Assembly (NCBI GenBank): GCA_020723345.1
Contig: DYJA01000069.1
Coordinates: 1 to 32,720 of the forward strand
DNA: 32,720 nt
Reading direction: 5' to 3'
Source: Candidatus Aquidulcis sp.
Lineage (GTDB): Bacteria; Chloroflexota; Anaerolineae; UBA4142
Part shown: positions 15,845 through 32,720 of the stretch, piece by piece
Layout: each line of letters begins with the position of its first letter
Position numbering within the stretch: the first letter of the stretch is position 1
Notes under the pieces: generated by a model
The model's input: the letters and a program-made list of their open reading frames with translations, nothing else
What the model was told of the DNA's origin: nothing
Databases searched by the model: none
Made by a program: the position numbers and the translations under genes

Positions 15845-18020
15845 TATTTGGGCAAGTTGGATCGTTTGGTTGTTCTGGATCGAGTGCGCGATCTTTGGGC
15901 TAGGTTCGACGGCAGGACCGTTCCTGCCGCCGGTCGCTCGCGCTCTAGGGCTGGATGAAAACAGGGCGAAGAACTGGGCAATGCGTCTCGCGCTTGCGCT
16001 TGCATTTTTCGGTGGGTTGATGACTGTCGGCGCGAGCGGATGGTACCTGGCGACGTTCGCGGGACGCGGAGAGGATTGCAACTGCAAAATCGCGACGACG
16101 ATCTGGTCGGGCATAGATATTGTCGGCATTTCAACCTTCCCACGGTTTGCGTTGACGTTGTATGTGGACGCGCTATCCGCGTTATTCGGGTTGCTGATTG
16201 GATTTTTTACCGCGTGCGTCGCTTGGTATTCGTTTAGTTGGCTAGATCGGAATCCGCGACGGCACAGTGTTGCCGGAGCGTTCGGGCTATTCGCGTTCTC
16301 CACGTTGCTGGTCGTGCTGGTCAATAATGGTTTTTGGCTGCTCTTGGTTTTAGAGCTGATGAGTTTATCGTTTGGCTACTTGGTGCTTTATCGCGGACAA
16401 CAAGGCGGCATGCAGGAAGAGAGCAAGACTGCTATCCGAACTTATCTGATTGTGAGTCACGTCAGTACGATTTGTCTAGCGATTGCGATTCTGATCATCG
16501 GCAACAACCCCAGGTCGCCGTCGCTCGACTTTGAACTGTTTCGCCAATACAGGGATTCGCTTCCCCCTCTGAGTCGAGACGTTGCTTTTGTGTTTGCGCT
16601 CATCGGCTTGGGGATGCGCGCCGGGATGACGCCGTTTCATTTCTGGGTGCCGGTTGCGCATCCTCAATCTCCGACGACGACGCACGCGTTTTCGCTCGGC
16701 GTCGCGATCAAAGTCGCCATCTATTTGATGATTCGATTTTTCTTTGAATTTCTGTCGCCGATATCGTGGTGGTGGGGCGCGTTGCTTTTGGTGCTGGCAG
16801 GGCTGACCGCGGTGCTCAACGTCTTTTACGCGCTGCTCAGCCGCGATCTCAAGCGCGCGTTGGCGTATCACAGCGTAGAAAACATCGGCATCATTTTGGT
16901 CGGGTTGGGCTTGGCGCTTCTCTTTGGTAGCGAACGTTTTGGTGGTGATGTGACGGTCCGGAGTGTCGCCGGGGTAGCCCTGATCGCGAGTTTGTTCCAC
17001 GTTATTAATCACGCTATTTTCAAAGGATTGTTGTATTTGGGCACGGGATGCATCGAGAATCGCACGCATACTGTGATTATGGACGAACTGGGCGGACTCA
17101 TCCGGCGTTATCCCTGGACAAGTGTAATGTTCTTGGTTGGCGCGATCGCGATTGCCGGGTTTCCGCCGTTTAACGGTTTTATCAGCGAATGGCTGACCCT
17201 GCAATCCTTTTTTGCGGGGATTGACGTTTATCGCGCGCGCGACTTGACGCCCGTGTTGATGCTCGTCTTGCCCGTCACGCTCATTATGCTGGGGCTGGCG
17301 TTTGCGCTGACCGCGCTGGCGTTCGTCAAGATCGCTGGAGAGACGTTGCTGGGGTTGCCGCGCAATCCCAAGATCGTCGCCGGGTTCAAGCCCGGCGACG
17401 CGCCGGTCTCCATGCGATTCGTTCTGTTCGTTCTGGCGGCGCTTTGCTTAGTACTCGGATTGTTTCCTAGTCTTTTGATTCCTTGGTTGGCGGCAGCGGT
17501 AAACGGCATTGGGTATGACACGCGGGCGTTGCGCGCCGATCTTTTTGATCTCACGATTGCTATTCAGAAATCGTCCGGCGAGAGTATCTATCTCACCTCA
17601 CTCGCGATGTTGCCGATTGGGATGTTAGTGGTGGGACCCGTGGCGACGATTCTTGCCGCCTTCGTCTGGCGGCGATTTCGACCGGCGCGCTCCAGCCCGG
17701 TCTGGGTCGGCGGTGAACCGTACCAACCGCAAACGATGCAATACACCGGCAGTGCGCTCTCCGCCCTCGTGTGGGAGACCTTCCAAAAACACGCGGCGGC
17801 GCGCCGATTCGAAGAACCGCTGCCCACCGTCTTTGCGCTTGCCGAAGGCAGGTACGTGATGGAACAGATCAATCGCGGGTACAACGCCGGGATCGCGATG
17901 GTGTTGCGGGCATCGACGTGGGTCGGCGAACATCTGCAAAACGGCGATATTCGAATGTACCTCTTGTACATTTTTGGCGCGTTCATCACCGTGCTCTTGG
18001 TGTTGGCGGTGGCGCGCTGA
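15834..18020 (+). CDS. HyfB/NuoL-like membrane subunit of an Ehr-type complex
   Basis: Antiporter-like proton/cation channel subunit of 728 residues with about 15 or more membrane helices. The core motifs are FWLLLVLELMSLSFGYLV (E174), GLGMRAGMTPFHFWVPVAHP (R262 at the position where most relatives have lysine), GVAIKVAIYLMIR (K293) and RALAYHSVENIGI. The C-terminal extension (from about 600) carries VWVGGEP and resembles HyfB-type subunits. The true start is 15834, inside the end of the upstream gene. Longer frames starting at 15612 only repeat that gene in another frame. The next gene starts 53 bases later. Together with the following five genes it encodes the membrane and peripheral parts of a group 4 hydrogenase-like complex. 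Confidence 0.9.
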   Translation: MTDNIWASWIVWLFWIECAIFGLGSTAGPFLPPVARALGLDENRAKNWAMRLALALAFFGGLMTVGASGWYLATFAGRGEDCNCKIATTIWSGIDIVGISTFPRFALTLYVDALSALFGLLIGFFTACVAWYSFSWLDRNPRRHSVAGAFGLFAFSTLLVVLVNNGFWLLLVLELMSLSFGYLVLYRGQQGGMQEESKTAIRTYLIVSHVSTICLAIAILIIGNNPRSPSLDFELFRQYRDSLPPLSRDVAFVFALIGLGMRAGMTPFHFWVPVAHPQSPTTTHAFSLGVAIKVAIYLMIRFFFEFLSPISWWWGALLLVLAGLTAVLNVFYALLSRDLKRALAYHSVENIGIILVGLGLALLFGSERFGGDVTVRSVAGVALIASLFHVINHAIFKGLLYLGTGCIENRTHTVIMDELGGLIRRYPWTSVMFLVGAIAIAGFPPFNGFISEWLTLQSFFAGIDVYRARDLTPVLMLVLPVTLIMLGLAFALTALAFVKIAGETLLGLPRNPKIVAGFKPGDAPVSMRFVLFVLAALCLVLGLFPSLLIPWLAAAVNGIGYDTRALRADLFDLTIAIQKSSGESIYLTSLAMLPIGMLVVGPVATILAAFVWRRFRPARSSPVWVGGEPYQPQTMQYTGSALSALVWETFQKHAAARRFEEPLPTVFALAEGRYVMEQINRGYNAGIAMVLRASTWVGEHLQNGDIRMYLLYIFGAFITVLLVLAVAR

Positions 18021-18073
18021 GAGTTGATTGCCTTGCAAAACATCCTTCGCTAGATTCAAAACCAGGTGAAACA

Positions 18074-19066
18074 ATGCAAGAGTTTCCACCCTTGTTCCGA
18101 TCGCTAATCATTTTGATTGCCCAGGCAAGTTTCAACGCGGTGATCGCGCCCGGCGCGATTGGATTGTTGCGCTGGTTCAACGCGCGGCTACAGCATCGGC
18201 GCGGCGCTGACATCTTCCAGCCCTACCGCGATCTGTACAAATTGACTTTCCGCAGGCAGTCTAGCATCTTTGAGCCAACCTCAGGGATCTTTTGGATCGC
18301 CCCTCCCGCGATCCTCGCGTGTTATTTTCTCCTAGGGGGACTACTGCCCAGTCTTTTCTTGACGGATTTGCCTGGCGCGCCTGCGCCGTGGCGCGGCCTC
18401 GATCTGTTGTTTGTGATCTATCTACTGGGGCTCGCCAAATTTATCGCTGGACTCGCTGCGTTCGACGCCGCCACGCCTTTCGGTAACATATCGAATGGGC
18501 GTCAATTCTTTTTGCACCTCCTCGTCGAACCGGTTTTTCTGGCGACGGTCTATGCGCTTGCGCTCAAAGGTCACACCAGCAATCTCGACCGCTTCATTGC
18601 GGATCAACAACAGTTGAGCGTCATTTCTGTCTTCGCGAATCCAGTCATGATCCTGGTATTGCTATCCCTCGGCACGATTTCTCTGGCGGAGAACGGGCGG
18701 CTGCCATTCGACAAGCCGGGGACGCACCTCGAATTGACGATGATCGAACCAGGGACGAGTCTTGAATTCAATGGACGCGGTTTGGCGCTGATCGAGTGGG
18801 CGAACGCGATGAAATTAACGTTCTTTGTTTCCCTACTGTCAGATCTCCTGTTCCCGTGGAGTCTCGCGACGAAATCATTTTCGGCCACCCTGCTTCCCGG
18901 CATGCTCGTCTATCTCGTGAAACTGGTGGCGGTTATTTTTCTCGTGGCGCTTTGGGAGATCACGCGAGCCAAATTGCGGCTGCGGGCAGTCTCTGGTGCG
19001 CTGATGGCGGCGCTCGGCGTGGCGTTTATCGCGTTGGTTTATGTGATTATGACCGACTATTTGTAG
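18074..19066 (+). CDS. HyfC/NuoH-like membrane subunit of an Ehr-type complex
   Basis: The product is 330 residues long, close to E. coli HyfC (about 322). It has eight or so membrane helices. Typical segments are QPYRDLYKLTFRR in the first cytoplasmic loop, the acidic motif ENGRLPFDKPGTHLELTMIE (about 210-230) and LEFNGRGLALIEWANAMKL. In complex I the NuoH subunit links the peripheral arm to the ion channels and lines the quinone cavity. Here it would link the altered large and small subunits to the HyfB- and HyfF-like channels. The ATG is preceded by AGGTGA at good distance. A 11-base gap separates it from the next gene. Confidence 0.92.
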   Translation: MQEFPPLFRSLIILIAQASFNAVIAPGAIGLLRWFNARLQHRRGADIFQPYRDLYKLTFRRQSSIFEPTSGIFWIAPPAILACYFLLGGLLPSLFLTDLPGAPAPWRGLDLLFVIYLLGLAKFIAGLAAFDAATPFGNISNGRQFFLHLLVEPVFLATVYALALKGHTSNLDRFIADQQQLSVISVFANPVMILVLLSLGTISLAENGRLPFDKPGTHLELTMIEPGTSLEFNGRGLALIEWANAMKLTFFVSLLSDLLFPWSLATKSFSATLLPGMLVYLVKLVAVIFLVALWEITRAKLRLRAVSGALMAALGVAFIALVYVIMTDYL

Positions 19067-19077
19067 GAGGATGAATC

Positions 19078-19845
19078 GTGGAATTTCTTCCCGAACTGAT
19101 TCTCGTCATATCTTTTTTCATCTTACTAGTGGCAGTATCGATATCAACGTCGACGACGGTCAAGAGTATGTTGAATCTCTATCAGTGGCAGGCATTGATG
19201 GTGACTGCGATCGTGTTATTTACTGCTGCCGAAAGTCAGCCGATCAATCTCCCCCTCGCGGTTGTTGCGGTGCTCCCAATTTTCCTGGCGTTGGCGATCA
19301 AACCTCTGTTGCGACGCGCAACGTTGGCTGTTCCGGAAGAGCCCGGCAAGGCGGAGTCAAAGACGCGCCCTCAATTACTCGAGGCGGATGGAGAAGGCGG
19401 GCTAGGCATGTTACCGCGCGAGCCGGAATTGACTTGGTTGCAGCAGGGTCGCTCGCGCCTTCCGCCGGTTGTCCTGCTCGGCATCGGTTCGATGTTGACG
19501 TTGTTTTCATTCATCGTGGCTTATCTTCTGATTGGGAAGGGCCCCCAACCGGGGATCGATCCCAACAGCGTCGGAATCTCGATTGCGCTGCTCCTGATCG
19601 GCATCTTGATCATGAGTAACAAGCGGGACATCATCGCGCAGATCATCGGCCTTTTGGTGATGGAACACGGTCTCTTCCTGGCGGCGATCAAAGTCATCAC
19701 GCGTCCACACCTTGCGATTTTCTTTGCCGGCGCCCTCTTCTTTTATATCTTGATCACACTCACCATTCTCGTCTGGCTTTTACCGACGTTGCATCGCGTC
19801 TCCGGCAGCATCGAACTGAACGCCCAGGCGCAACTGAAAGGATGA
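19078..19845 (+). CDS. HyfE/NuoK-like membrane subunit of an Ehr-type complex
   Basis: The product has 255 residues and a GTG start, chosen because AGGAGG (19065-19070) lies seven bases upstream. An ATG at 19071 touches the ribosome-binding site and is in another frame. Three helices are followed by a hydrophilic loop of about 50 residues (80-130), longer than expected for the family (HyfE of E. coli is about 216 residues), and then further helices. The segment ISIALLLIGILIMSNKRDII and the glutamate in LLVMEHGLFLAA (E196) match the buried glutamate of NuoK-type subunits. The 4-base gap to the next gene indicates translational coupling. Confidence 0.88.
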   Translation: MEFLPELILVISFFILLVAVSISTSTTVKSMLNLYQWQALMVTAIVLFTAAESQPINLPLAVVAVLPIFLALAIKPLLRRATLAVPEEPGKAESKTRPQLLEADGEGGLGMLPREPELTWLQQGRSRLPPVVLLGIGSMLTLFSFIVAYLLIGKGPQPGIDPNSVGISIALLLIGILIMSNKRDIIAQIIGLLVMEHGLFLAAIKVITRPHLAIFFAGALFFYILITLTILVWLLPTLHRVSGSIELNAQAQLKG

Positions 19846-19849
19846 GGCG

Positions 19850-21430
19850 ATGGATCTGTTTGATCAGACGACAGCCGCCAAGTTATTGGTGGTTACGCCG
19901 CTGTTTGCGGCAATCCTTACCTTGCTGCCGGAGTGGCTGGGACGATTGCGGTCGCCCTTTGGCGCTGGCACCGCGCGATATTCCCAAACGATGCAAAATG
20001 GAATGACCGTTGCTGCTTCATCCATTTCGCTCATTCTCGCTTTGTTCCTCGCGATTGAACCTGCCACGGGTAAGAAACTCGCGTTCGAATTTGTCGGAAT
20101 GGAATTCTTTCTCGACGCGCTCAGTGTCTATTTTGTGTTATTGGTCAACCTCGTCGCGCTCGCTGCCTCGCTTTACATCCGATCCTTTTTGAATTATCAA
20201 GCGGAAGTGTTTCCGTACCAATCTACGGACGCCACGCGCTTTCACGTCATCTTTAATTTGTTTCATTTCACCATGCTGTTGGTGCCGATGGTGGACAACC
20301 TCGTCCTCCTCTGGATTTGTGTCGAATTGACCACGATCACCTCGACGATTCTTGTCGGTCATCGCCGCGATCGCTTGGCGTTGGAGGCGGCGTGGAAGTA
20401 TATCGTCATCACTTCGACCGGGATCATCTTTGCCTTGCTCGGCACACTATTTTTGGCGAATGCCAATCCAACGGGCGAATCGATGAATTGGTCGTACCTG
20501 GTCAAGGTGGCGAGTCAATTCGACAAGAATTTCGTCAAACTCTCGTTTCTGTTTATCCTGGTCGGTTATGGCGCCAAAGCTGGTTTTGCGCCGATGCACA
20601 CCTGGCTGCCGGATGGTCACGGCGAAGCGCCCTTTCCAGTCAGCGCGCTCTTGTCCGGCGTGTTGCTCAAGTCCGCGCTGTACGCCATTCTGCGTTTTTA
20701 CACGCTCACCAACCTCGCGCTCGGCGATACGCTTTTCACGTCGCGGATCCTTCTCGTATCGGGACTCTTTTCGCTCGCGCTGGCTACGCCGTTTATTCTC
20801 AAGCGTAACCGGTTCAAGCGCGTTCTGGCGTATCACAGTTTGGAGCACATGGGCATCATCACCTTTGGTCTGGGAATCGGCGGCAACATCGCGCTGTTTG
20901 GCGCATTGCTGCACGCCTTGAATCACGCGATCACCAAGGCATTGATGTTTCTAGCGTTCGGCAACGTGCAGGTGAGTTACGCGCGCGTGCGCGGCGACGA
21001 AGAAGAACACGTCGTCGGCATCTTGCGCGCGACGCCGATCACGGGATTCGTGTTAGCCCTCGGCGGGTTGGCGCTGGTCGGCTCGCCGCCGTTCAACATC
21101 TTCCTCAGTGAATTTATTATTCTGTGGGCAGCCGTCCAGCAAGCGGTCGAGCAGTCGAGTTTTGGATTGGCGGCGGCGACCGCGCTCTTTGTGCTTTCGG
21201 TGACGCTGATCTTTGCCGGATTGGTGCGCCACCTCGGTCGGATGCTCATTGGCATTCCTCCTTCGAACGTCAAACCGGAGACCGTTGGACAGGTTTTGCC
21301 CCTACTCGTGCTCTTTGCCATCGTCTTGGTTTTTGGCTTCACCGTCCCTTCCATCGGTCTTTGGGACATACCTCGATTGCTGCAACAAAGCGTTCTGGTG
21401 ATCGAGTGCGGAGTGAGCCCATGTCGTTAG
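19850..21430 (+). CDS. HyfF/NuoN-like antiporter subunit of an Ehr-type complex
   Basis: The product has 526 residues, the same length as E. coli HyfF, with about 13-14 membrane helices. The charged residues of ion-translocating antiporter-like subunits are all present: glutamate in WICVELTTITS (E159), lysine in GYGAKAGFAPMHTWLPDGHG (K243), lysine in SGVLLKSALYAILRF (K274) and histidine in RVLAYHSLEHMGI. This subunit should therefore still conduct ions. GGATGAGG precedes the ATG. The stop overlaps the start of the next gene by 10 bases. Confidence 0.92.
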   Translation: MDLFDQTTAAKLLVVTPLFAAILTLLPEWLGRLRSPFGAGTARYSQTMQNGMTVAASSISLILALFLAIEPATGKKLAFEFVGMEFFLDALSVYFVLLVNLVALAASLYIRSFLNYQAEVFPYQSTDATRFHVIFNLFHFTMLLVPMVDNLVLLWICVELTTITSTILVGHRRDRLALEAAWKYIVITSTGIIFALLGTLFLANANPTGESMNWSYLVKVASQFDKNFVKLSFLFILVGYGAKAGFAPMHTWLPDGHGEAPFPVSALLSGVLLKSALYAILRFYTLTNLALGDTLFTSRILLVSGLFSLALATPFILKRNRFKRVLAYHSLEHMGIITFGLGIGGNIALFGALLHALNHAITKALMFLAFGNVQVSYARVRGDEEEHVVGILRATPITGFVLALGGLALVGSPPFNIFLSEFIILWAAVQQAVEQSSFGLAAATALFVLSVTLIFAGLVRHLGRMLIGIPPSNVKPETVGQVLPLLVLFAIVLVFGFTVPSIGLWDIPRLLQQSVLVIECGVSPCR

Positions 21431-23130
21431 ACGCAACCTACCGGCAATTCTATCAGTGGGCGGAAAAGTACGGCGAATGGTTGTACCTGCCCGCGTCCAA
21501 TCACATCGCGACGCGCCTGCAAGAACCGGACGCGCTGCGCGCCTTTGCCCGGCTGCTTGCCGACGCGCGTGTGTACCTCGCGACCGTCGTGGCGAATGAC
21601 GAACGCGAGTTGGAGGATCACTGCTTCAAAATCTACTATCTCTTCTCGCACCCCACCGAGGATCTTTTTTTGACCGTCGAGTATCTCTTGGGACAAGGCG
21701 CGGAATTCTATCCTTCCTTGTTCGCGTTATTTTCCTCCGTGGATTCATTCGAAAGGGAAATCCGCGATCTGTTCGGGCTGAAAGCGATCCGAGAAAATGG
21801 CGAGACCGTTCAGCCGCGTAGTTGGCTCCACGCGCCCTATCCCGCCGATTTATTTCCGCTGCGACGCGACCGCACCAACGCGCAACTCAAGCAAGCCGTG
21901 GATGCGTACAATCGAGACGGACTAGATCGCAGTACGCCGGTGGAAACGATGAGCGTCAACCCCGGCAGTCTGTTGTTGTCGGTGGGACCCGTTCACGCCG
22001 GAATTATCGAGCCGGGGCGATTCGTTTTTCGGATCGCGGGCGAGGTGATTGACGATCTGACAATTTTCCTGGGATACGCGCACAAAGGGATCGAGCGGCT
22101 CTTTCAGACGCGCCCGACACTGACGGATGGTTGGCGGCTCGCCGAGCAAGTCTCGGGGGATTCGGCGTTCGCGCACGGGTTGGCGTACTGCCGCGCGGTG
22201 GAGATGTTGGCGAACGCGCCGCCGGAGACGGCGGCGGAACTGCTGCGCGGATTGTTTCTCGAACTGGAGCGGATGTACAATCACATCGGCGATGTCGCCG
22301 CGCTCGCGCAGGACGTCGCGCTCGAGCAGATCGCGTCGGAGATCGCCGTCGTGCGCGAAAACTTGGTGCGCTTGAATGCCGCCATCGCCGGGCATCGCTA
22401 TCTGCGTGGGCTGAATCGTCCCGGCGGTATTTGCTTGCCGCGACCGCTGGATCACGCTCGGATCGCGATGGAATTGCATTCGGCGGTCGAATCGTTCAAC
22501 ATCCTCGCGAATGAATTGACGAACCGGAGCGCTTTTCGCGATCGCACGATTGAAACTGGCGTTCTTACATCGTCGGACGCTTTGGCGACCGGCGCGACCG
22601 GGTTGGCGGCGCGCGCCTCCGGCATCGCGCGGGATTTTCGCTGCACTCATCCGAGTGGGGTGTACTGCGAACCCTGGCTGCGACGATTGATGGAGCCGGC
22701 GCCTTTCGGCAAAACCGATTTGCCCGAGGCGACACGCGGTGATGTCTATGCGCGCTTTTTGACGCGAGTTCGCGAGGTCAATACTTCTGCGGCACTGATC
22801 CACGCGATTCTTGAGCGATGGAAAGATTGCGGGGAAAAAGAAAACACGGATTTCCTCACGGAGATCCGGTTCAACCCGGACAGGAATTTTACCTTCGCGC
22901 TGGGCTATGCCGAAGGGTGGCGCGGGGAAATCATCTACTGGCTGATGCAGGACAAGATGGAACACATCTATCGCTGCCAAGTCCGCGACCCGTCGATGTT
23001 GAACTGGCTCGCGCTGCGCTGTTCCATCGTCCCTCACGAGGTCGAGGGCAAGCGCGTCGAGACGATCTTGCCGGATTTTCCATTGATCAATAAAAGTTTC
23101 AACTTGTCATACTCGGGGAACGATTTATGA
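21421..23130 (+). CDS. HyfG-like large subunit (NuoC-NuoD fusion) lacking all NiFe cysteines
   Basis: The product has 569 residues. Residues 1-170 are NuoC-like (FEREIRDLFGL, 110-120, and a conserved HAPYPADLFPLR). Residues 178-569 are NuoD/hydrogenase large-subunit-like (SVGPVHAGIIEPGRFVFRI, GYAHKGIERLF, MYNHIGD). In active group 4 hydrogenases two CxxC motifs hold the nickel-iron centre. Here the first reads VSGDS (S245, S248) and the second DPSMLNW (S525, N528), so every ligand is replaced. The fold is otherwise intact and the reading frame is open, so this looks like a maintained change and not decay. Such proteins are known from energy-converting hydrogenase-related (Ehr) complexes, whose reaction is unknown. 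No hyp maturation genes are nearby, which agrees with the loss. Confidence 0.9.
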   Translation: MSLDATYRQFYQWAEKYGEWLYLPASNHIATRLQEPDALRAFARLLADARVYLATVVANDERELEDHCFKIYYLFSHPTEDLFLTVEYLLGQGAEFYPSLFALFSSVDSFEREIRDLFGLKAIRENGETVQPRSWLHAPYPADLFPLRRDRTNAQLKQAVDAYNRDGLDRSTPVETMSVNPGSLLLSVGPVHAGIIEPGRFVFRIAGEVIDDLTIFLGYAHKGIERLFQTRPTLTDGWRLAEQVSGDSAFAHGLAYCRAVEMLANAPPETAAELLRGLFLELERMYNHIGDVAALAQDVALEQIASEIAVVRENLVRLNAAIAGHRYLRGLNRPGGICLPRPLDHARIAMELHSAVESFNILANELTNRSAFRDRTIETGVLTSSDALATGATGLAARASGIARDFRCTHPSGVYCEPWLRRLMEPAPFGKTDLPEATRGDVYARFLTRVREVNTSAALIHAILERWKDCGEKENTDFLTEIRFNPDRNFTFALGYAEGWRGEIIYWLMQDKMEHIYRCQVRDPSMLNWLALRCSIVPHEVEGKRVETILPDFPLINKSFNLSYSGNDL

Positions 23131-23145
23131 GTGGAGCACAGAATC

Positions 23146-23667
23146 ATGTCACATCGACAATTGGGTAAGAGAAATTGGGTCAATCGCTTGCAGGCGTTGT
23201 TCGGTTTGCGCCTGGACACCGAAACGCAGCCGCGTCCGAGCAGAGGATCGATTTTTAGCCGCTCCATTTTCATTCGACATCTGGATGGCGGTTCGACCAA
23301 CGCGCCGGAAATGGAACTGACCGCGCTGAGTAATCCCATCTACGATCTCGCGCAGTACGGCATTCACTTTGTGCCTTCGCCGCGTCACGCCGACATTCTG
23401 ATCGTCACGGGACCGCTCACTTGGAATATGCTTGGACCAACGCTCGCGACGTTCGAGGCAATGCCAGAACCCAAACGGATCGTCACTGTTGGCGATTGCG
23501 CCAGTTTTTCGGAACAAGGCGGTGATCCAGATTGTCTCTTCAGCGAATCGTATGCGGTCACCGATTTGCCATCTGAAATGACAACGAAAATCGTCGCGCA
23601 CGTTGCCGGCGATCCGCCCACGCCGCGCGCGATCATCCAAAGTTTGTTGCGCTTGGACAAGAAATAA
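23146..23667 (+). CDS. HyfI/NuoB-like small subunit lacking most Fe-S ligands
   Basis: The product has 173 residues. The family core is evident: NPIYDLAQYGIHFVPSPRHA, DILIVTGPLTWNM and RIVTVGDCASF. The proximal [4Fe-4S] cluster of this family is normally held by a CNGC-type pair, a GDC or GTC cysteine and a GCPP cysteine. Here the pair reads STNAPE (T51, P54) and GCPP reads GDPP (D156). Only C118 of GDCA remains; C130 is not at a standard position. A cluster of the usual kind is thus unlikely. The ATG at 23146 is preferred over the GTG at 23131 because GGAG (23133-23136) then lies nine bases upstream. It is the last gene of the operon; its stop codon abuts the terminator. Confidence 0.88.
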   Translation: MSHRQLGKRNWVNRLQALFGLRLDTETQPRPSRGSIFSRSIFIRHLDGGSTNAPEMELTALSNPIYDLAQYGIHFVPSPRHADILIVTGPLTWNMLGPTLATFEAMPEPKRIVTVGDCASFSEQGGDPDCLFSESYAVTDLPSEMTTKIVAHVAGDPPTPRAIIQSLLRLDKK

Positions 23668-27499: not shown

Positions 27500-29182
27500 A
27501 TGTTATTTTCCTCGCGTCGTTCTCCGGTTATTGCGCGCAACGGCATGGTCGCCGCGAGCCAGCCGCTCGCGACGATGGCGGGAGTTAAAATTTTGATGCA
27601 AGGCGGCAACGCCGCCGACGCGGCTGTCGCCACGGCTGCCGCGTTGAACGTCACCGAGCCAACTTCGACCGGACTCGGCGGCGATATGTTCGCGCTCTTT
27701 TACGACGCGCAAACGAAACGCGTGACCGCGCTCAACGGTTCCGGTCGCGCGCCGGCGGCTTTGACCATCAAACTCGTCGAGCGAGATGGTCTCGCGCCCA
27801 AAATCATAAATCATCAATCTGAAATCATAAATCCATTCCACGCGCACAACATCACCGTTCCCGGCGCGTGCGCGGGCTGGTGCGATTTGATCGCGCGGCA
27901 CGGCACGCTGCCGCTGCGCGATATTCTCGCGCCCGCGCTTGAACTTGCGGAAAAAGGATTTCCCGTCGCGCCGACGACGGCGTACTTTTGGCAGCGCGGC
28001 GCGGAACGCCAACTCAAATCCGCGCTGAACGGACGCGAACTGACGATTGACGGACGCGCGCCGCGCGCGGGCGAAATTTTCCGCAACCCCGGGCTGGCGC
28101 GCACGTTCCGCGCGATTGCCGAAGGCGGCAAGGACGCGTACTATCGCGGCGACATCGCGCGCGCGATTGCCGACGTCGTTTACAAGTCCGGCGGCGTGAT
28201 GACGACCGACGATCTCGCCGCGCACATATCGACCTGGGACGCGCCGATCAGCACGACCTACCGCGGCTATCGTGTCTGGGAATGTCCGCCGAATGGACAA
28301 GGACTTGCCGCGCTGCTCGCGCTGAACGTGCTGGAAGGATTTGATCTCGCGAGTACCGCGCCGATGAGCGCGGCGCGCTGGCATTTGCTCGTCGAGGCGA
28401 TGCGCGTCGCGTTCGCGGACACGCGTTGGTACATCGCGGATCCCAAATTCGCGCCCGCGCCGCTCGACGGTCTGCTCTCGAAAAAATACGCGGCGGAGCG
28501 GCGCGCATTGATTGATCCGCATCACGCAACACGCAACACGATGCACGGCGCGCCGGTCGCGTCGTCGGACACGGTGTACTTTTGCGTCGTGGACGGGCGC
28601 GGCAATGCGTGCTCGTTCATCAATTCAAACTATATGGGTTTTGGCACCGGCATCGTGCCGCCGGGCTGGGGTTTTACGCTGCAAAATCGCGGCAACAATT
28701 TCTCGCTCGATCCCGCGCACCCAAACGCGCTCGCGCCGCGCAAACGCCCGTACCACACGATCATTCCGGGAATGATCACGCGCGATCCTTCGACTCCATC
28801 TCCGCTTCGCTCCGATTCCGCTCAGGATGTACCTCCGCAAGAACTCATTGCGCCGTTCGGCGTGATGGGCGGATTTATGCAGCCGCAAGGTCACGTCCAA
28901 GTCGTCGTGGGCATGATCGACGACGGACTCGATCCGCAAGCCGCGCTGGATCGTCCGCGCTTTTGCCTGACGACCGCGACGCCGGACAGCCGCGTCGAAA
29001 TCGAAGAGGGCGTCCCGGCGGAAACGCTGGCGGCGCTCGCGCAAATGGGACACGACATCGCGCCGGTGACCGGTTACGCGCGCGCGGTTTTCGGGCGGGG
29101 GCAGATCATCCGGCGCGAGCCGGACGGCACGCTGTGGGGCGGCAGCGATCCGCGCGCGGATGGATGCGCGGTGGGATTATAG
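27500..29182 (+). CDS. ggt: Gamma-glutamyltransferase family protein
   Basis: Ntn-hydrolase of 560 residues that transfers or hydrolyses gamma-glutamyl groups, for instance from glutathione. The family start MVAASQPLATMAGVKILMQG, then GGNAADAAVATAAALNVTEP, and GLGGDMFALFYD are clear. The threonine that becomes the nucleophile after self-cleavage should be T358 in SSDTVYFCVVD; FGTGIVPPG and RPYHTIIPGM follow. No signal peptide is seen, so it is probably cytoplasmic. The ATG at 27500 has GGAG upstream; an earlier ATG at 27473 lies inside the repeat. Three peptides look derived from intergenic repeats: about 99-112 (KIINHQSEIINP), 341-347 (HHATRNT) and 429-446 (DPSTPSPLRSDSAQDVPP). Confidence 0.93.
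   Translation: MLFSSRRSPVIARNGMVAASQPLATMAGVKILMQGGNAADAAVATAAALNVTEPTSTGLGGDMFALFYDAQTKRVTALNGSGRAPAALTIKLVERDGLAPKIINHQSEIINPFHAHNITVPGACAGWCDLIARHGTLPLRDILAPALELAEKGFPVAPTTAYFWQRGAERQLKSALNGRELTIDGRAPRAGEIFRNPGLARTFRAIAEGGKDAYYRGDIARAIADVVYKSGGVMTTDDLAAHISTWDAPISTTYRGYRVWECPPNGQGLAALLALNVLEGFDLASTAPMSAARWHLLVEAMRVAFADTRWYIADPKFAPAPLDGLLSKKYAAERRALIDPHHATRNTMHGAPVASSDTVYFCVVDGRGNACSFINSNYMGFGTGIVPPGWGFTLQNRGNNFSLDPAHPNALAPRKRPYHTIIPGMITRDPSTPSPLRSDSAQDVPPQELIAPFGVMGGFMQPQGHVQVVVGMIDDGLDPQAALDRPRFCLTTATPDSRVEIEEGVPAETLAALAQMGHDIAPVTGYARAVFGRGQIIRREPDGTLWGGSDPRADGCAVGL
27799..27833. repeat. AATCATAAATC-type repeat inside the ggt frame
   Basis: The bases AAATCATAAATCATCAATC and then TGAAATCATAAATC form an AT-rich run in a GC-rich gene. 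A related copy lies between genes at 29186-29211 on the opposite strand (ATTATGATTTCTGATTTAGG). In the protein it encodes KIINHQSEIINP. Confidence 0.65.
28784..28829. repeat. CCTTCGACT...GCTCAGGAT repeat inside the ggt frame
   Basis: It starts GATCCTTCGACTCC and ends GATTCCGCTCAGGATG, with complementary ends (ATCCT / AGGAT). A shorter copy with the same ends occurs at 32277-32300 inside the DUF4062 gene. Confidence 0.65.
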
Positions 29183-29297: not shown

Positions 29298-29320
29298 ATC
29301 TAGGTTGGAGCGAGGTGACT

Positions 29321-32300
29321 ATGCCAGAACAAGCGACCGAAATCAAATTGCGGGTGTTTCTTGCTTCGCCGAGCGATGTGGCGGACGAGCGCAAGCGCGT
29401 CGCGCGCGTGATCGACGCGATGAACAAGTCCGAGGCGCGCGCCCATGGCGTCACGCTCGAATTGTTAAAGTGGGAAGACGTTGCGCCGGGAATGGGACGC
29501 CCGGAGCAAGTCCTCCTCGATCAACTCGCGCCGGACAAATGGGATATTTTCATCGGCGTTCTGTGGCTCCGCTTTGGCTCGGAAAGCGGCGGGATCGATC
29601 CCGATACGCGCCAACCGTACCTGTCCGGCACCGAAGAAGAATTCAAAATCGCGTATCGCTTTAATCAAGCGCGCGGCGATGGCTTTCCTAAAATCATGAT
29701 GTATCGTTGCCGGCGCGATCCGCCGAACGCGCTCGAGTTGTTCAGCCATCCGAAAAACATCGAGCAGTTCAGCTGCGTCAACGCGTTCTTCGATGAGTTA
29801 AAGCCCACCGGCAATTATCCCGGATTGTATCAAGAGTACAAAACGCCGGAAGATTTCGCCGAGTTGGTGCGCCAGCATCTTGGGATGCAAGTTGCCGAGT
29901 TCGCGCAAGCGCAACGCGCCGCGCTGCCGCCCCCGCCCGCACCGCCTCCGCTCGCGCCGCGCGAACCGACCGGCGCGGAACGCCAAGCCGCGTTGACGTG
30001 CTATCTCAAAACGTTGAGCGAGCGCTGCGACGCATTGCCGCTTACCTCGCTCGACAGCGATCCACGTCATCACACCCGATTGTCGCTCCATCATGTTTAC
30101 ATCGCGCTCGATACGACGACGCCGGTGCCGCTGACCGACGCCGAAAAAGAACAGCGCAAGGAACGATTAATGCCGGGACGCGATGAGACGCGCCCCTTGT
30201 CCGTGATGGAAGCGGCGGAACGTCAACAATATTTGGTTATCACCGGCGAACCGGGGAGCGGCAAATCATCGTTCGTCAATCGCTTGGCGTTTTTGTTGGC
30301 GAACGCGCGACTGAGGAACGCTGCCTTGCCGGAGCCATGGACGCACGACGCGTTATTGCCGGTGCGTGTGTTCTTGCGCGAACTCGCGCCCACTTTGCCC
30401 GACGCGCAAGTATTGGCGCGACTGCCTGATGAGGCGCGCGCGCAAACCCTGCGGGACGCCGTGCGCGCGTTCATCGCGCAACTTCCGGCGAATTTGGATG
30501 CGGACGCCGCCGCTGCCACGCCGTTGATTTTGTCCGCGCTGTCCGCTGGCGAGTGCCTCGTCATTTTCGACGGGTTGGACGAGGTTGCGCCCGCGCGGCG
30601 CAAAATCGCGCGGGAAGCGGTGGAAGCGTGCGCGGCGCGGTTTCGCGCTAATCGTTTTCTCGTGACCTGCCGCATCCGTTCTTATCAAGGCGATGCTCAA
30701 CTGCCGTCGTTTGAAAACGTGACGCTGACTGAGTTGGACGATCCGAAGATCGAAATGTTTGCGACGGCGTGGTACAACGCGCGCGCCGACCTGGGGCAAA
30801 TCGCGCGCGCTCAAGTGGCGGAACGCGCCGGCAATTTGTGGCGCGCGATTCAAGAGGATGAGCAACTCAAGGAATTGGCGCGAACGCCGCTCTTGCTCAC
30901 GACGATGGCAGTCGTTCACACCGCGCAGATCGAATTGCCGCGCAAGCGCGCGATCTTGTACCAACGCTGCGTCGAAGTCTTGTTGCGCCGCTGGCAAGAG
31001 ACCAAGTTCGGCAAACTGACGTTGCTCGACGATCTCGGTTTGAGCGAACAAGAATTGCTCGAAGCGTTGTGGTACGTGGCGTACGAGGCGCATAAACGCG
31101 GCAACAAGGATGAAACGGCGGATTTGCCGCGCAAGGATGTGTTGGCGATTTTGGCGCGCCGGCTCGGCGATGAAATCAAAGCCGTGAAAATTCTGGAGCA
31201 CGTCGAGGAACGCGCCGGGTTGCTCATCGGGCACGGCGGCGCGGACGACGCCGAACCGACGTACAGTTTTCCGCATCGCACGTTTCAGGAATTTCTCGCC
31301 GGGTGTTATTTGGCGGCGGCGGGGCGCACGAGTTTTGGGCGACAGTTGTGCGCGCATTTGAGCGATAGCGACAAGTGGCAAGTGGCGGCGCAGTTGGGCG
31401 CAGAGCATGTGCTTTATACTCCCGGTGGGCGAACCTCCGATGTATTGGACGCGTTGTACTTGCTATGCCCAGCCACCGCCAAGCCGCGCGACGAGAACGC
31501 GTTGCGCGGGATTGTGTGGGCAGGCGACATTGCATCCGAGATGGGCACCGACCGGATTCGGCGCGAGGAGGTAGATAATCCCGCCATCGCCGTGGAATTT
31601 TTGCAACGTCTTCTTGACCAGCTGGTTCAGTTGATCGAAACACCAAACATGCTCTCCCCGCTTGAACGCGCCGATGCCGGCAATGCGCTTGCCAAGTTAG
31701 GCGACCCGCGCCCCGGGGTGCGGACTCGCGCAGATGGCTTGCCTGATTTTGTTTGGTGCGAAGTTTCCACGGGTCCTTTCACGATGGGGACACGCGAGCA
31801 AGACATTCCTAGATTGAAGAAAAAATATGGCGGCGATGAACAGTGGTACAAACAGGAAACACCCCAACACGAAGAAAAAAGCATCACGCGCGCCTACCTC
31901 ATCGGCAAATATCCGGTGACGAACGCGCAGTTCAACGCGTTTGTGGAGGCAGGCGGCTATCGCGATGCGCGCTTTTGGCAAGAAGCGCTCGCGCAAGGTT
32001 GGTGGACGAAAGGCGGCTTCAAAGGACGCTATGACAACGAAGCGCGCGGCGGTCCCTATCCTTCCGGTTCGCCGTTCAACTTGGACAATCATCCCGTCGT
32101 CGGTGTGTCGTGGTATGAAGCGCTGGCGTTTTGCCGCTGGCTGACAGAGATGTTCAAGGTTTCGGGTTTCAAGTTTCAGGTTTGGCGCAATGGTCAACTT
32201 GAAACTTTGAACCTGAAACCTGAAACACTCACGGCTCGCTTGCCCACCGAAGCCGAATGGGAAAAAGCCGCGCGCGGTCCTTCGACTGGCGCTCAGGATG

Positions 32301-32659
32301 ATGAGCGAATCTTTCCGTGGCAGGGCGAGTTGACGACGCAACATGCGAATTACAGCGAAACGAAAATCGGCGCGACGAGCGCGGTTGGAATTTTTCCGCT
32401 TGGCGCATCGCCGTACGGGTTGCTGGATGCGAGTGGCAACGTGTGGGAATGGTGTAGCACCAAGTGGGTTGACAGTTACAAGGATTATGATAAAAAGATA
32501 AAAGACCGCGAGAACCTTGAAGGAGATTTTACCCGCGTGCTGCGCGGCGGCGCGTTCTACAATGGATCCGACTTCGTCCGCGCGGCGTGTCGCTACAGGT
32601 ACTACCCGAACCTCAGGCTCAGGAACGACGGTTTTCGGGTCGTCGCGGGCGCGTCCTAA
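29321..32659 (+). CDS. DUF4062-NACHT-FGE/sulfatase-domain protein, candidate DGR target
   Basis: The product has 1112 residues. DUF4062, a TIR-like domain, covers about 8-110 (KLRVFLASPSDVADERKRVA, WDIFIGVLWLRFGS). A Pro-rich linker (about 205-220) is followed by NACHT with Walker A GEPGSGKSS (309-317) and Walker B LVIFDGLDE (413-421), a helical region to about 790, then a formylglycine-generating-enzyme-like domain (about 805-1110: PFTMGT, GKYPVTNAQFNAFVEAGGYR, RLPTEAEWEKAARG, GNVWEWCSTKW, VLRGGAFYNGSD). This FGE-like/C-type lectin end ends in a sequence with the signs of a diversity-generating variable region. NACHT proteins with TIR-like and binding domains usually serve in defence or self/non-self recognition; that role is inferred. 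The ATG at 29321 has GAGGTGA upstream; a GTG at 29315 is less likely. Two repeat-derived peptides lie in the FGE domain. Confidence 0.85.
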   Translation: MPEQATEIKLRVFLASPSDVADERKRVARVIDAMNKSEARAHGVTLELLKWEDVAPGMGRPEQVLLDQLAPDKWDIFIGVLWLRFGSESGGIDPDTRQPYLSGTEEEFKIAYRFNQARGDGFPKIMMYRCRRDPPNALELFSHPKNIEQFSCVNAFFDELKPTGNYPGLYQEYKTPEDFAELVRQHLGMQVAEFAQAQRAALPPPPAPPPLAPREPTGAERQAALTCYLKTLSERCDALPLTSLDSDPRHHTRLSLHHVYIALDTTTPVPLTDAEKEQRKERLMPGRDETRPLSVMEAAERQQYLVITGEPGSGKSSFVNRLAFLLANARLRNAALPEPWTHDALLPVRVFLRELAPTLPDAQVLARLPDEARAQTLRDAVRAFIAQLPANLDADAAAATPLILSALSAGECLVIFDGLDEVAPARRKIAREAVEACAARFRANRFLVTCRIRSYQGDAQLPSFENVTLTELDDPKIEMFATAWYNARADLGQIARAQVAERAGNLWRAIQEDEQLKELARTPLLLTTMAVVHTAQIELPRKRAILYQRCVEVLLRRWQETKFGKLTLLDDLGLSEQELLEALWYVAYEAHKRGNKDETADLPRKDVLAILARRLGDEIKAVKILEHVEERAGLLIGHGGADDAEPTYSFPHRTFQEFLAGCYLAAAGRTSFGRQLCAHLSDSDKWQVAAQLGAEHVLYTPGGRTSDVLDALYLLCPATAKPRDENALRGIVWAGDIASEMGTDRIRREEVDNPAIAVEFLQRLLDQLVQLIETPNMLSPLERADAGNALAKLGDPRPGVRTRADGLPDFVWCEVSTGPFTMGTREQDIPRLKKKYGGDEQWYKQETPQHEEKSITRAYLIGKYPVTNAQFNAFVEAGGYRDARFWQEALAQGWWTKGGFKGRYDNEARGGPYPSGSPFNLDNHPVVGVSWYEALAFCRWLTEMFKVSGFKFQVWRNGQLETLNLKPETLTARLPTEAEWEKAARGPSTGAQDDERIFPWQGELTTQHANYSETKIGATSAVGIFPLGASPYGLLDASGNVWEWCSTKWVDSYKDYDKKIKDRENLEGDFTRVLRGGAFYNGSDFVRAACRYRYYPNLRLRNDGFRVVAGAS
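32153..32226. repeat. GTTTCAAGTTTCAGG inverted repeat inside the FGE domain
   Basis: The left part (GGGTTTCAAGTTTCAGG, about 32164-32180) and right part (CAACTTGAAACTTTGAACC and CTGAAACCTGAAAC, about 32195-32226) are imperfectly complementary. It encodes FKVSGFKFQVWRNGQLETLN, an insertion between two conserved FGE segments (FCRWLTE and RLPTEAEWEKA). Confidence 0.65.
32537..32640 (+). other. Candidate variable region (VR) of a diversity-generating retroelement
   Basis: The last 40 codons follow the plan RVLRGG...VRAA.R....P..R.R..GFRV of DGR targets in FGE/C-type lectin folds. Codons at the expected variable sites are TAC, GAC, TTC, TGT, TAC, TAC, TAC, AAC, CTC, CTC and AAC. All but TGT end in C, as if derived from AAC in a template by changes at adenines. 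AGG, rare elsewhere in this GC-rich DNA, occurs three times (32597, 32615, 32621). No template repeat or reverse transcriptase is in the window; they may lie to the right. Confidence 0.6.
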
Positions 32660-32720
32660 CTCTGATCTCTGAGCCCTCTGATCTCTGAAACTCTGAAGAG
32701 GAAGGGGGTTTGGGGGATAC
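32660..32720. repeat. CTCTGATCTCTGA direct repeats after the DUF4062 gene
   Basis: CTCTGATCTCTGAG (about 32660-32674) and CTCTGATCTCTGAA (about 32677-32690) are near-identical, followed by a third partial copy CTCTGAAG. No gene is seen in the last 61 bases. Confidence 0.65.

What the first reader, a model, noticed from the sequence alone, without database searches (positions are those of the whole stretch)
32537..32659. Signs of a diversity-generating retroelement target at the right edge
The FGE-type C-terminus has NNC codons (TAC, CTC, TTC, GDC-like changes of AAC) separated by conserved GC-rich codons and three unusual AGG codons. This is what adenine-directed mutagenic retrohoming leaves behind. 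The host protein is a DUF4062-NACHT type, a kind of conflict protein, so the cell may be diversifying a defence or recognition receptor.
Basis: partly seen in the sequence, partly recalled or inferred. Interest (0 to 1): 0.8.

Follow-up and report, generated by a model that had tools for sequence, protein, structure and literature searches.

The report
Self-mutating tip of bacterial immune-like receptor
The end of this gene is the target of a genuine mutation-making machine (a diversity-generating retroelement) with which a Chloroflexota-like bacterium rewrites the sensor tip of an immune-receptor-like protein; the kind of system is already known, and this is a clear new example with an unusual putative NAD-destroying domain attached.

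Summary
Window 32531-32656 is the variable repeat (VR) of a diversity-generating retroelement (DGR). Its template (TR) lies on another contig of the same genome (C116:26231-26099, minus). All 14 mismatches in the coding VR are at TR adenines (P 1.9e-10); over the BLAST-defined 133 bases it is 14 of 16 (P 7.8e-9). Beside the TR lie Avd and a reverse transcriptase (RT). In a same-family genome (G008) the whole locus is intact: DUF4062-NACHT-FGE target, VR, TCTG repeats, hairpin, TR, Avd, RT; the window contig stops where that hairpin begins. The genome has four RT cassettes and six VRs. Across orthologues the 16 mutable codons are 6-25% identical, the domains around them 57-84%. In a sister species two VR sequences with 125/125 identical flanking bases differ at 13 positions, all TR adenines. 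Likeliest role: a STAND/NLR-type conflict protein with a putative NADase effector (DUF4062) and a hypermutable sensor; that function is inferred, not shown. DGR-diversified NACHT-FGE proteins are published; [quoted passage not shown]

The parts
29315..32659 (+). Target gene, 1114 aa (GTG 29315 or ATG 29321 start): DUF4062-NACHT-FGE
   Evidence: ORF; Pfam
29351..29653 (+). DUF4062 domain, putative TIR-like NADase effector; Glu109 in SGTEEEF invariant in five aligned copies
   Evidence: Pfam 25.3 bits against cut-off 24.7; alignment; NADase role from PMC13174449
30230..30772 (+). NACHT (STAND NTPase) domain
   Evidence: Pfam 31.1 bits against cut-off 26.7
31760..32644 (+). FGE-sulfatase (C-lectin-type fold) domain carrying the VR
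   Evidence: Pfam 4.2e-48; predicted fold matches FGE enzymes and the DGR protein TvpA 2y3c
32531..32656 (+). DGR variable repeat
   Evidence: 14 of 14 mismatches at adenines of the TR on C116:26231-26099(-)
32558..32629 (+). The 16 adenine-bearing (mutable) codons; no change at a TR adenine can make a stop codon; about 1.75e16 possible peptides
32630..32655 (+). 26 bases identical to the TR and without adenine, position of an IMH-like anchor
   Evidence: function inferred from BPP-1
32660..32697 (+). Tandem CTCTG repeats (five units) after the stop codon
   Evidence: the same kind of repeat follows most related VRs, not TRs
32704..32720 (+). Probable left arm of the target-site hairpin, cut off by the contig end
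   Evidence: homology to G008, where GGAAGGGGGTCTGGGGGAAACTAAGTTTCCCCCAG follows at the same place; the hairpin itself is not in the window

Best explanation
Window 32531-32656 is the variable repeat of a cellular DGR. RNA copied from the TR is reverse-transcribed by the DGR reverse transcriptase with Avd, adenines are miscopied, and the mutated cDNA replaces the VR, anchored by the adenine-free 3' stretch and probably helped by a hairpin just downstream. This rewrites one face of the C-terminal FGE domain of a DUF4062-NACHT protein. The protein most likely works like an NLR: the FGE domain senses a foreign molecule, NACHT oligomerises, and DUF4062 depletes NAD+ and stops or kills the cell. 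Shown: VR, TR, reverse transcriptase, Avd, adenine-restricted substitution, divergence of the mutable codons, two VR sequences in a sister species. Inferred: homing mechanism in this organism, sensing, oligomerisation, NADase activity, antiphage role. DGR part about 0.98; immune-receptor role about 0.65. The figure below is for the DGR reading with a recognition role of some kind.
For: TR with adenine-restricted mismatches. RT and Avd beside it: RVT_1, GLPIGNLTSQ and YVDD motifs, NF033474 DGR Avd 92.8 bits against cut-off 80. Intact syntenic locus in G008, 23 of 24 mismatches at adenines. Mutable codons 1-4 of 16 identical between orthologues against 57-84% in the domains around them. Two VR sequences in G001 differing at 13 positions, all TR adenines, with 125 of 125 flanking bases identical. 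Six VRs and four RT cassettes in the genome. Best PDB match of the RT is 8ub7 and eight related entries, named only 'Reverse transcriptase'; that these are the BPP-1 DGR enzyme is from my own knowledge. Published NACHT-FGE DGR targets are proposed antigen sensors, and DUF4062 is a reported TIR-like NADase with antiphage activity.
Against: No reads, expression or activity data for this genome. VR and TR are not joined on one contig here. The predicted DUF4062 model found no TIR-like match (best TM-scores about 0.3) and no PDB sequence match. PADLOC gives only a candidate-system match for the N-terminus (PDC-S60).
Confidence: 0.93

Rival explanations
1. A genuine DGR, but the target is not a defence receptor: it is a self-recognition, adhesion or signalling sensor tuned by mutation.
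For: No function has been tested. Related RT loci also have FGE-tipped protein kinases as targets, which suggests wider signalling uses.
Against: NACHT, DUF4062 and TIR partners point to conflict systems; published relatives are associated with them.
Confidence: 0.3
2. A relic: the VR was once diversified, but in this strain the DGR is inactive or the site is no longer served.
For: RT and TR are on another contig; orthologues in G004 and G003 lack the hairpin and a nearby cassette.
Against: VR and TR agree at every non-adenine position of the coding VR; RT and Avd frames are open; G008 has the locus intact.
Confidence: 0.1
3. No DGR: C100, C102 and C116 are ordinary diverged FGE paralogues or fragments.
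For: The genome has 19 FGE-domain matches, and FGE C-termini vary in sequence.
Against: Adenine-restricted mismatches (P 7.8e-9 and 3.2e-16), TR next to Avd and RT, two VR sequences with identical flanks in G001.
Confidence: 0.005

Closest known systems
DGR-diversified STAND/NACHT-CLec putative antigen sensors (Thiohalocapsa PB-PSB1 DGR 3 and 6, clade 5D relatives; PMC10907252)
   Same: FGE/C-lectin C-terminus with VR, central NACHT or nSTAND NTPase, several DGRs per genome, VRs matched by a TR elsewhere in the genome; filamentous Chloroflexi are among the organisms in that tree
   Different: N-terminal DUF4062 here; the paper does not mention DUF4062. Clade placement of this RT was not tested
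Bordetella phage BPP-1 DGR (target-site study PMC3240598)
   Same: Adenine mutagenesis, Avd plus RT, GC-rich hairpin after the VR
   Different: Cellular, not phage; hairpin farther from the VR, loops not GRNA; receptor-like target, not a tail protein
Swarozyc / DUF4062 TIR-like NADases (PMC13174449, preprint)
   Same: DUF4062 domain with conserved Glu; in human TEP1, NWD1, NWD2 and NPHP3 DUF4062 lies next to NACHT
   Different: No DGR or FGE sensor is mentioned there
Treponema denticola TvpA (2y3c)
   Same: FGE-like fold as a DGR variable domain; matched by sequence and by predicted fold
   Different: No NACHT or effector domain in that 294-residue chain

Membership tests
Diversity-generating retroelement | VR and TR near-copies with substitutions restricted to TR adenines | tested here: met
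   14 of 14 in the coding VR, 14 of 16 over the BLAST range; C102 22 of 23
Diversity-generating retroelement | DGR-type reverse transcriptase | tested here: met
   RVT_1 with GLPIGNLTSQ and YVDD; 18 of 27 homologous loci hold local TR-VR pairs. The TIGR04416 group II hit is far below its cut-off
Diversity-generating retroelement | Accessory protein Avd | tested here: met
   NF033474 above cut-off; Pfam bAvd
Diversity-generating retroelement | VR at the 3' end of a C-lectin-type ligand-binding domain | tested here: met
   FGE domain
Diversity-generating retroelement | Hairpin downstream of the VR | tested here: inconclusive
   Complete in G008 and at C66, C102 and C107; the window ends in its left arm
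Diversity-generating retroelement | Diversification in a population | tested here: inconclusive
   Two VR sequences in sister species G001; no reads for this genome
DGR-diversified STAND conflict systems (clade 5D type) | NACHT or nSTAND plus VR-bearing CLec in one protein | tested here: met
DGR-diversified STAND conflict systems (clade 5D type) | RT falls in DGR clade 5D | not tested
   No reference RT set was at hand
DGR-diversified STAND conflict systems (clade 5D type) | Antiphage or conflict function | not testable with these tools
   needs experiment
DUF4062 TIR-like NADase | DUF4062 homology with the conserved Glu | tested here: met
   Pfam just above cut-off; invariant Glu in five copies. 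Its equivalence to the published catalytic Glu is inferred
DUF4062 TIR-like NADase | TIR-like fold | tested here: inconclusive
   Five-sequence model, mean pLDDT 74.7; only weak Rossmann-like matches
DUF4062 TIR-like NADase | NAD+ hydrolysis | not testable with these tools
   needs enzyme assay

The most novel reading that the evidence does not exclude
A one-polypeptide adaptive NLR: a TIR-like NADase (DUF4062) driven by a NACHT switch whose sensor tip is rewritten by a retroelement, with the same template also rewriting a TIR-FGE partner (C102), so that an NLR-like protein and a TIR protein are diversified from one template. In addition, tandem YYYTG (CTCTGA-type) repeats between VR and hairpin, seen after VRs in several phyla but not after TRs, would be an undescribed cis element of DGR target sites.
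Probability: 0.35. Interest if true: 0.75.

Novelty: new member of a known kind. Interest (0 to 1): 0.52.

Why it matters
It is a clean, testable case of a bacterial NLR-like protein with a self-mutating sensor. Its candidate effector (DUF4062) has a simple assay, NAD+ loss, so the open question whether DGR-tipped STAND proteins are immune receptors becomes directly testable. Orthologues with a conserved body and a scrambled tip, and two natural VR sequences in a sister species, show that such loci are rewritten in nature.

Tried and rejected
Plain FGE paralogue divergence was rejected by the adenine-restricted mismatches. Viral origin: no match of the target in phage records and none of the RT patterns in viral contigs. 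Trans-only action was considered; cis is more likely for this VR because the G008 orthologue has the same TR-Avd-RT order as C116 right beside it. An end overlap between C100 and C116 was sought and not found. TCTG repeats as a VR-only signal within the genome: rejected, many other places have similar repeats. A pattern search for the VR of the C9 template found only the TR; the VR is on C43 and lacks three bases. DUF4062 fold and PDB sequence searches gave nothing useful. The hairpin alignment was poor, so no base-pair count was made. Two slips of mine, corrected in the text: the P values come from stretches extended only until the first non-adenine mismatch and so favour the hypothesis; one search replaces them. 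In one search the last template codon was typed TCC; the real TR reads TCA, which changes nothing in the table of mutable codons. A first report was returned unread because its fields were malformed.

Full report
What is in the window. The window is a complete contig (G000:C100, 32720 bases) of a 6.34 Mb, 132-contig genome. Its closest named RT relatives are mostly Anaerolineae and other Chloroflexota, which suggests the host; the genome itself is unnamed. The gene at 29315-32659 encodes DUF4062 (aa 13-113), NACHT (306-486) and a C-terminal FGE-sulfatase domain (816-1110).

Template and machinery. A DNA search of the genome with the 3' end of the gene found two strong matches, on C102 and C116. 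The C116 match (26231-26099, minus) has AAC at the variable codons. In the coding VR (32531-32656) all 14 mismatches are at TR adenines (P 1.9e-10). Over the 133 bases that BLAST aligned, 14 of 16 are (P 7.8e-9), the other two lying at and after the stop codon. The C102 VR gives 22 of 23 (P 3.2e-16). An earlier calculation extended each stretch only to its first non-adenine mismatch, so its P values are biased and are not used. Next to the TR lie Avd (25883-25524; NF033474 above cut-off) and an RT (25620-24337; RVT_1, GLPIGNLTSQ and YVDD). No change at the mutable positions can produce a stop codon; about 1.75e16 peptides are possible.

More than one element. Four RT cassettes are present. C116 right serves the window and C102; C116 left serves C128; C66 serves C66 and C107; C9 serves C43, which a 45-base exact overlap joins to C9. 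The C66, C107 and C128 pairs each have two non-adenine mismatches among 22-23 (P 6e-13 to 6e-14). The C43 VR lacks three bases relative to its TR and was matched by eye. Targets are DUF4062-NACHT-FGE (C100, C128), NACHT-FGE (C66, C43) and TIR-FGE (C102, C107). So the window's template serves both a NACHT protein and a TIR protein, as does the C66 template.

Why the cassette is not in the window. In G008, another genus of the same family, an orthologue 61% identical over residues 3-862 is followed on the same strand by VR, CTCTG repeats, a hairpin, TR, Avd and RT, in the same TR-Avd-RT order as on C116. The window ends in what is, by comparison with G008, the left arm of that hairpin. Other contigs also stop in or beside VRs: C128, C43 and G001 C38, C281, C182 and C253. 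Variation among cells at the VR is one possible cause and the GC-rich hairpin another; I cannot separate them.

Evidence that diversification happens. Against orthologues in G004, G003 and G008 the 16 mutable codons are 25, 25 and 6% identical; the constant VR positions are 71-88% and the rest of the protein 57-84%, depending on domain. In sister species G001 two contigs share 125 of 125 bases after the VR but differ at 13 positions in the 36 VR bases that both hold, all 13 at TR adenines (P 5e-16). They are two alleles of one site or two very recent copies; both imply homing.

Wider family. RT relatives occur in 20 of 60 related genomes, up to seven in one. 27 loci came from named genomes, mainly Chloroflexota, with single ones labelled Myxococcales, Methylococcaceae, Desulfobacterales, Acidobacteria, Ideonella and Patescibacteria. 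18 of the 27 contain local TR-VR pairs with mostly adenine mismatches (the one in L147 is weak). Scanned targets are FGE-tipped NACHT, KAP NTPase, TIR or protein kinase proteins; DUF4062 was not among them. DUF4062-NACHT orthologues of the window gene occur in G003, G004, G008 and, more distantly, G001, so this form looks restricted to the host's family in the genomes examined.

Cis elements. GC-rich hairpins follow the VRs of C66, C102, C107, G001 C182, G008 and several others, with different outer stems that stay paired (CCAGAG/CTCTGG, CTGAG/CTCAG, TGCAG/CTGCA, CCAAAG/CTTTGG). In this genome TGGGGG-N(5-14)-CCCCCA occurs at five places: three follow VRs and one opens the C116 left cassette. 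This agrees with the BPP-1 target hairpin, though loops differ from GRNA and the distance is larger. Between VR and hairpin most VRs carry tandem YYYTG repeats: mean 4.7 per 75 bases after 32 VRs, 0.8 after 23 TRs, 0.6 in background. I defined the motif after seeing these same sequences, VR ends were set by hand and many loci are related, so the P value printed there is not an independent test. Similar repeats occur elsewhere in the genome, so a function is not established.

Mechanism and standing. DUF4062 has been reported as a TIR-like NADase family with antiphage activity that lies next to NACHT in human proteins (PMC13174449, preprint). The likely catalytic Glu is invariant in the five copies aligned here, but the fold test was inconclusive. 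NACHT-CLec DGR targets were proposed as antigen sensors in multicellular bacteria (PMC10907252). Together these make an NLR-like conflict protein with a hypermutating sensor the likeliest reading. The DGR is shown; the immune function is inferred. The kind is known. No paper in the library holds both 'diversity-generating retroelement' and 'DUF4062', but supplements could not be read and most subscription papers are not held.

Noticed in passing
window 32660-32697; after VRs in L066, L068, L119, L126, L130, L132, L134, L138, L141, L142, L148, L151, L230: Tandem YYYTG repeats (CTCTGA/CTCTGG type) lie between VR and hairpin in most related DGR targets from several phyla, and not after TRs. Motif defined after the fact; function unknown.
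   Followed up: partly
L068 10134-11852 (-), L126 3710-4969 (-): TIR-FGE proteins away from any RT carry VRs that match the C116 and C66 templates, so each template serves a NACHT protein and a TIR protein.
   Followed up: partly
window 32155-32232, 32281-32305, 27806-27835, 28785-28835: Short repeat-like, partly palindromic inserts appear to be carried in frame inside coding genes (FGE gene and gamma-glutamyltransferase-like gene); some homologous FGE domains have different inserts at the same place.
   Followed up: no
ends of G000 C100, C128, C43, C116, C9; G001 C38, C281, C182, C253: Contigs repeatedly end in or beside DGR parts, which may reflect cell-to-cell variation at VRs or hard-to-sequence hairpins.
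   Followed up: partly
G001 C281 3' end (L079) and C253 5' end (L120): Two VR sequences with identical 125-base flanks differ only at TR adenines: natural alleles or very recent copies.
   Followed up: yes
window about 15870-23667: Run of membrane-protein and hydrogenase-like ORFs that looks by eye like a group 4 NiFe hydrogenase or complex I-like operon; not tested.
   Followed up: no
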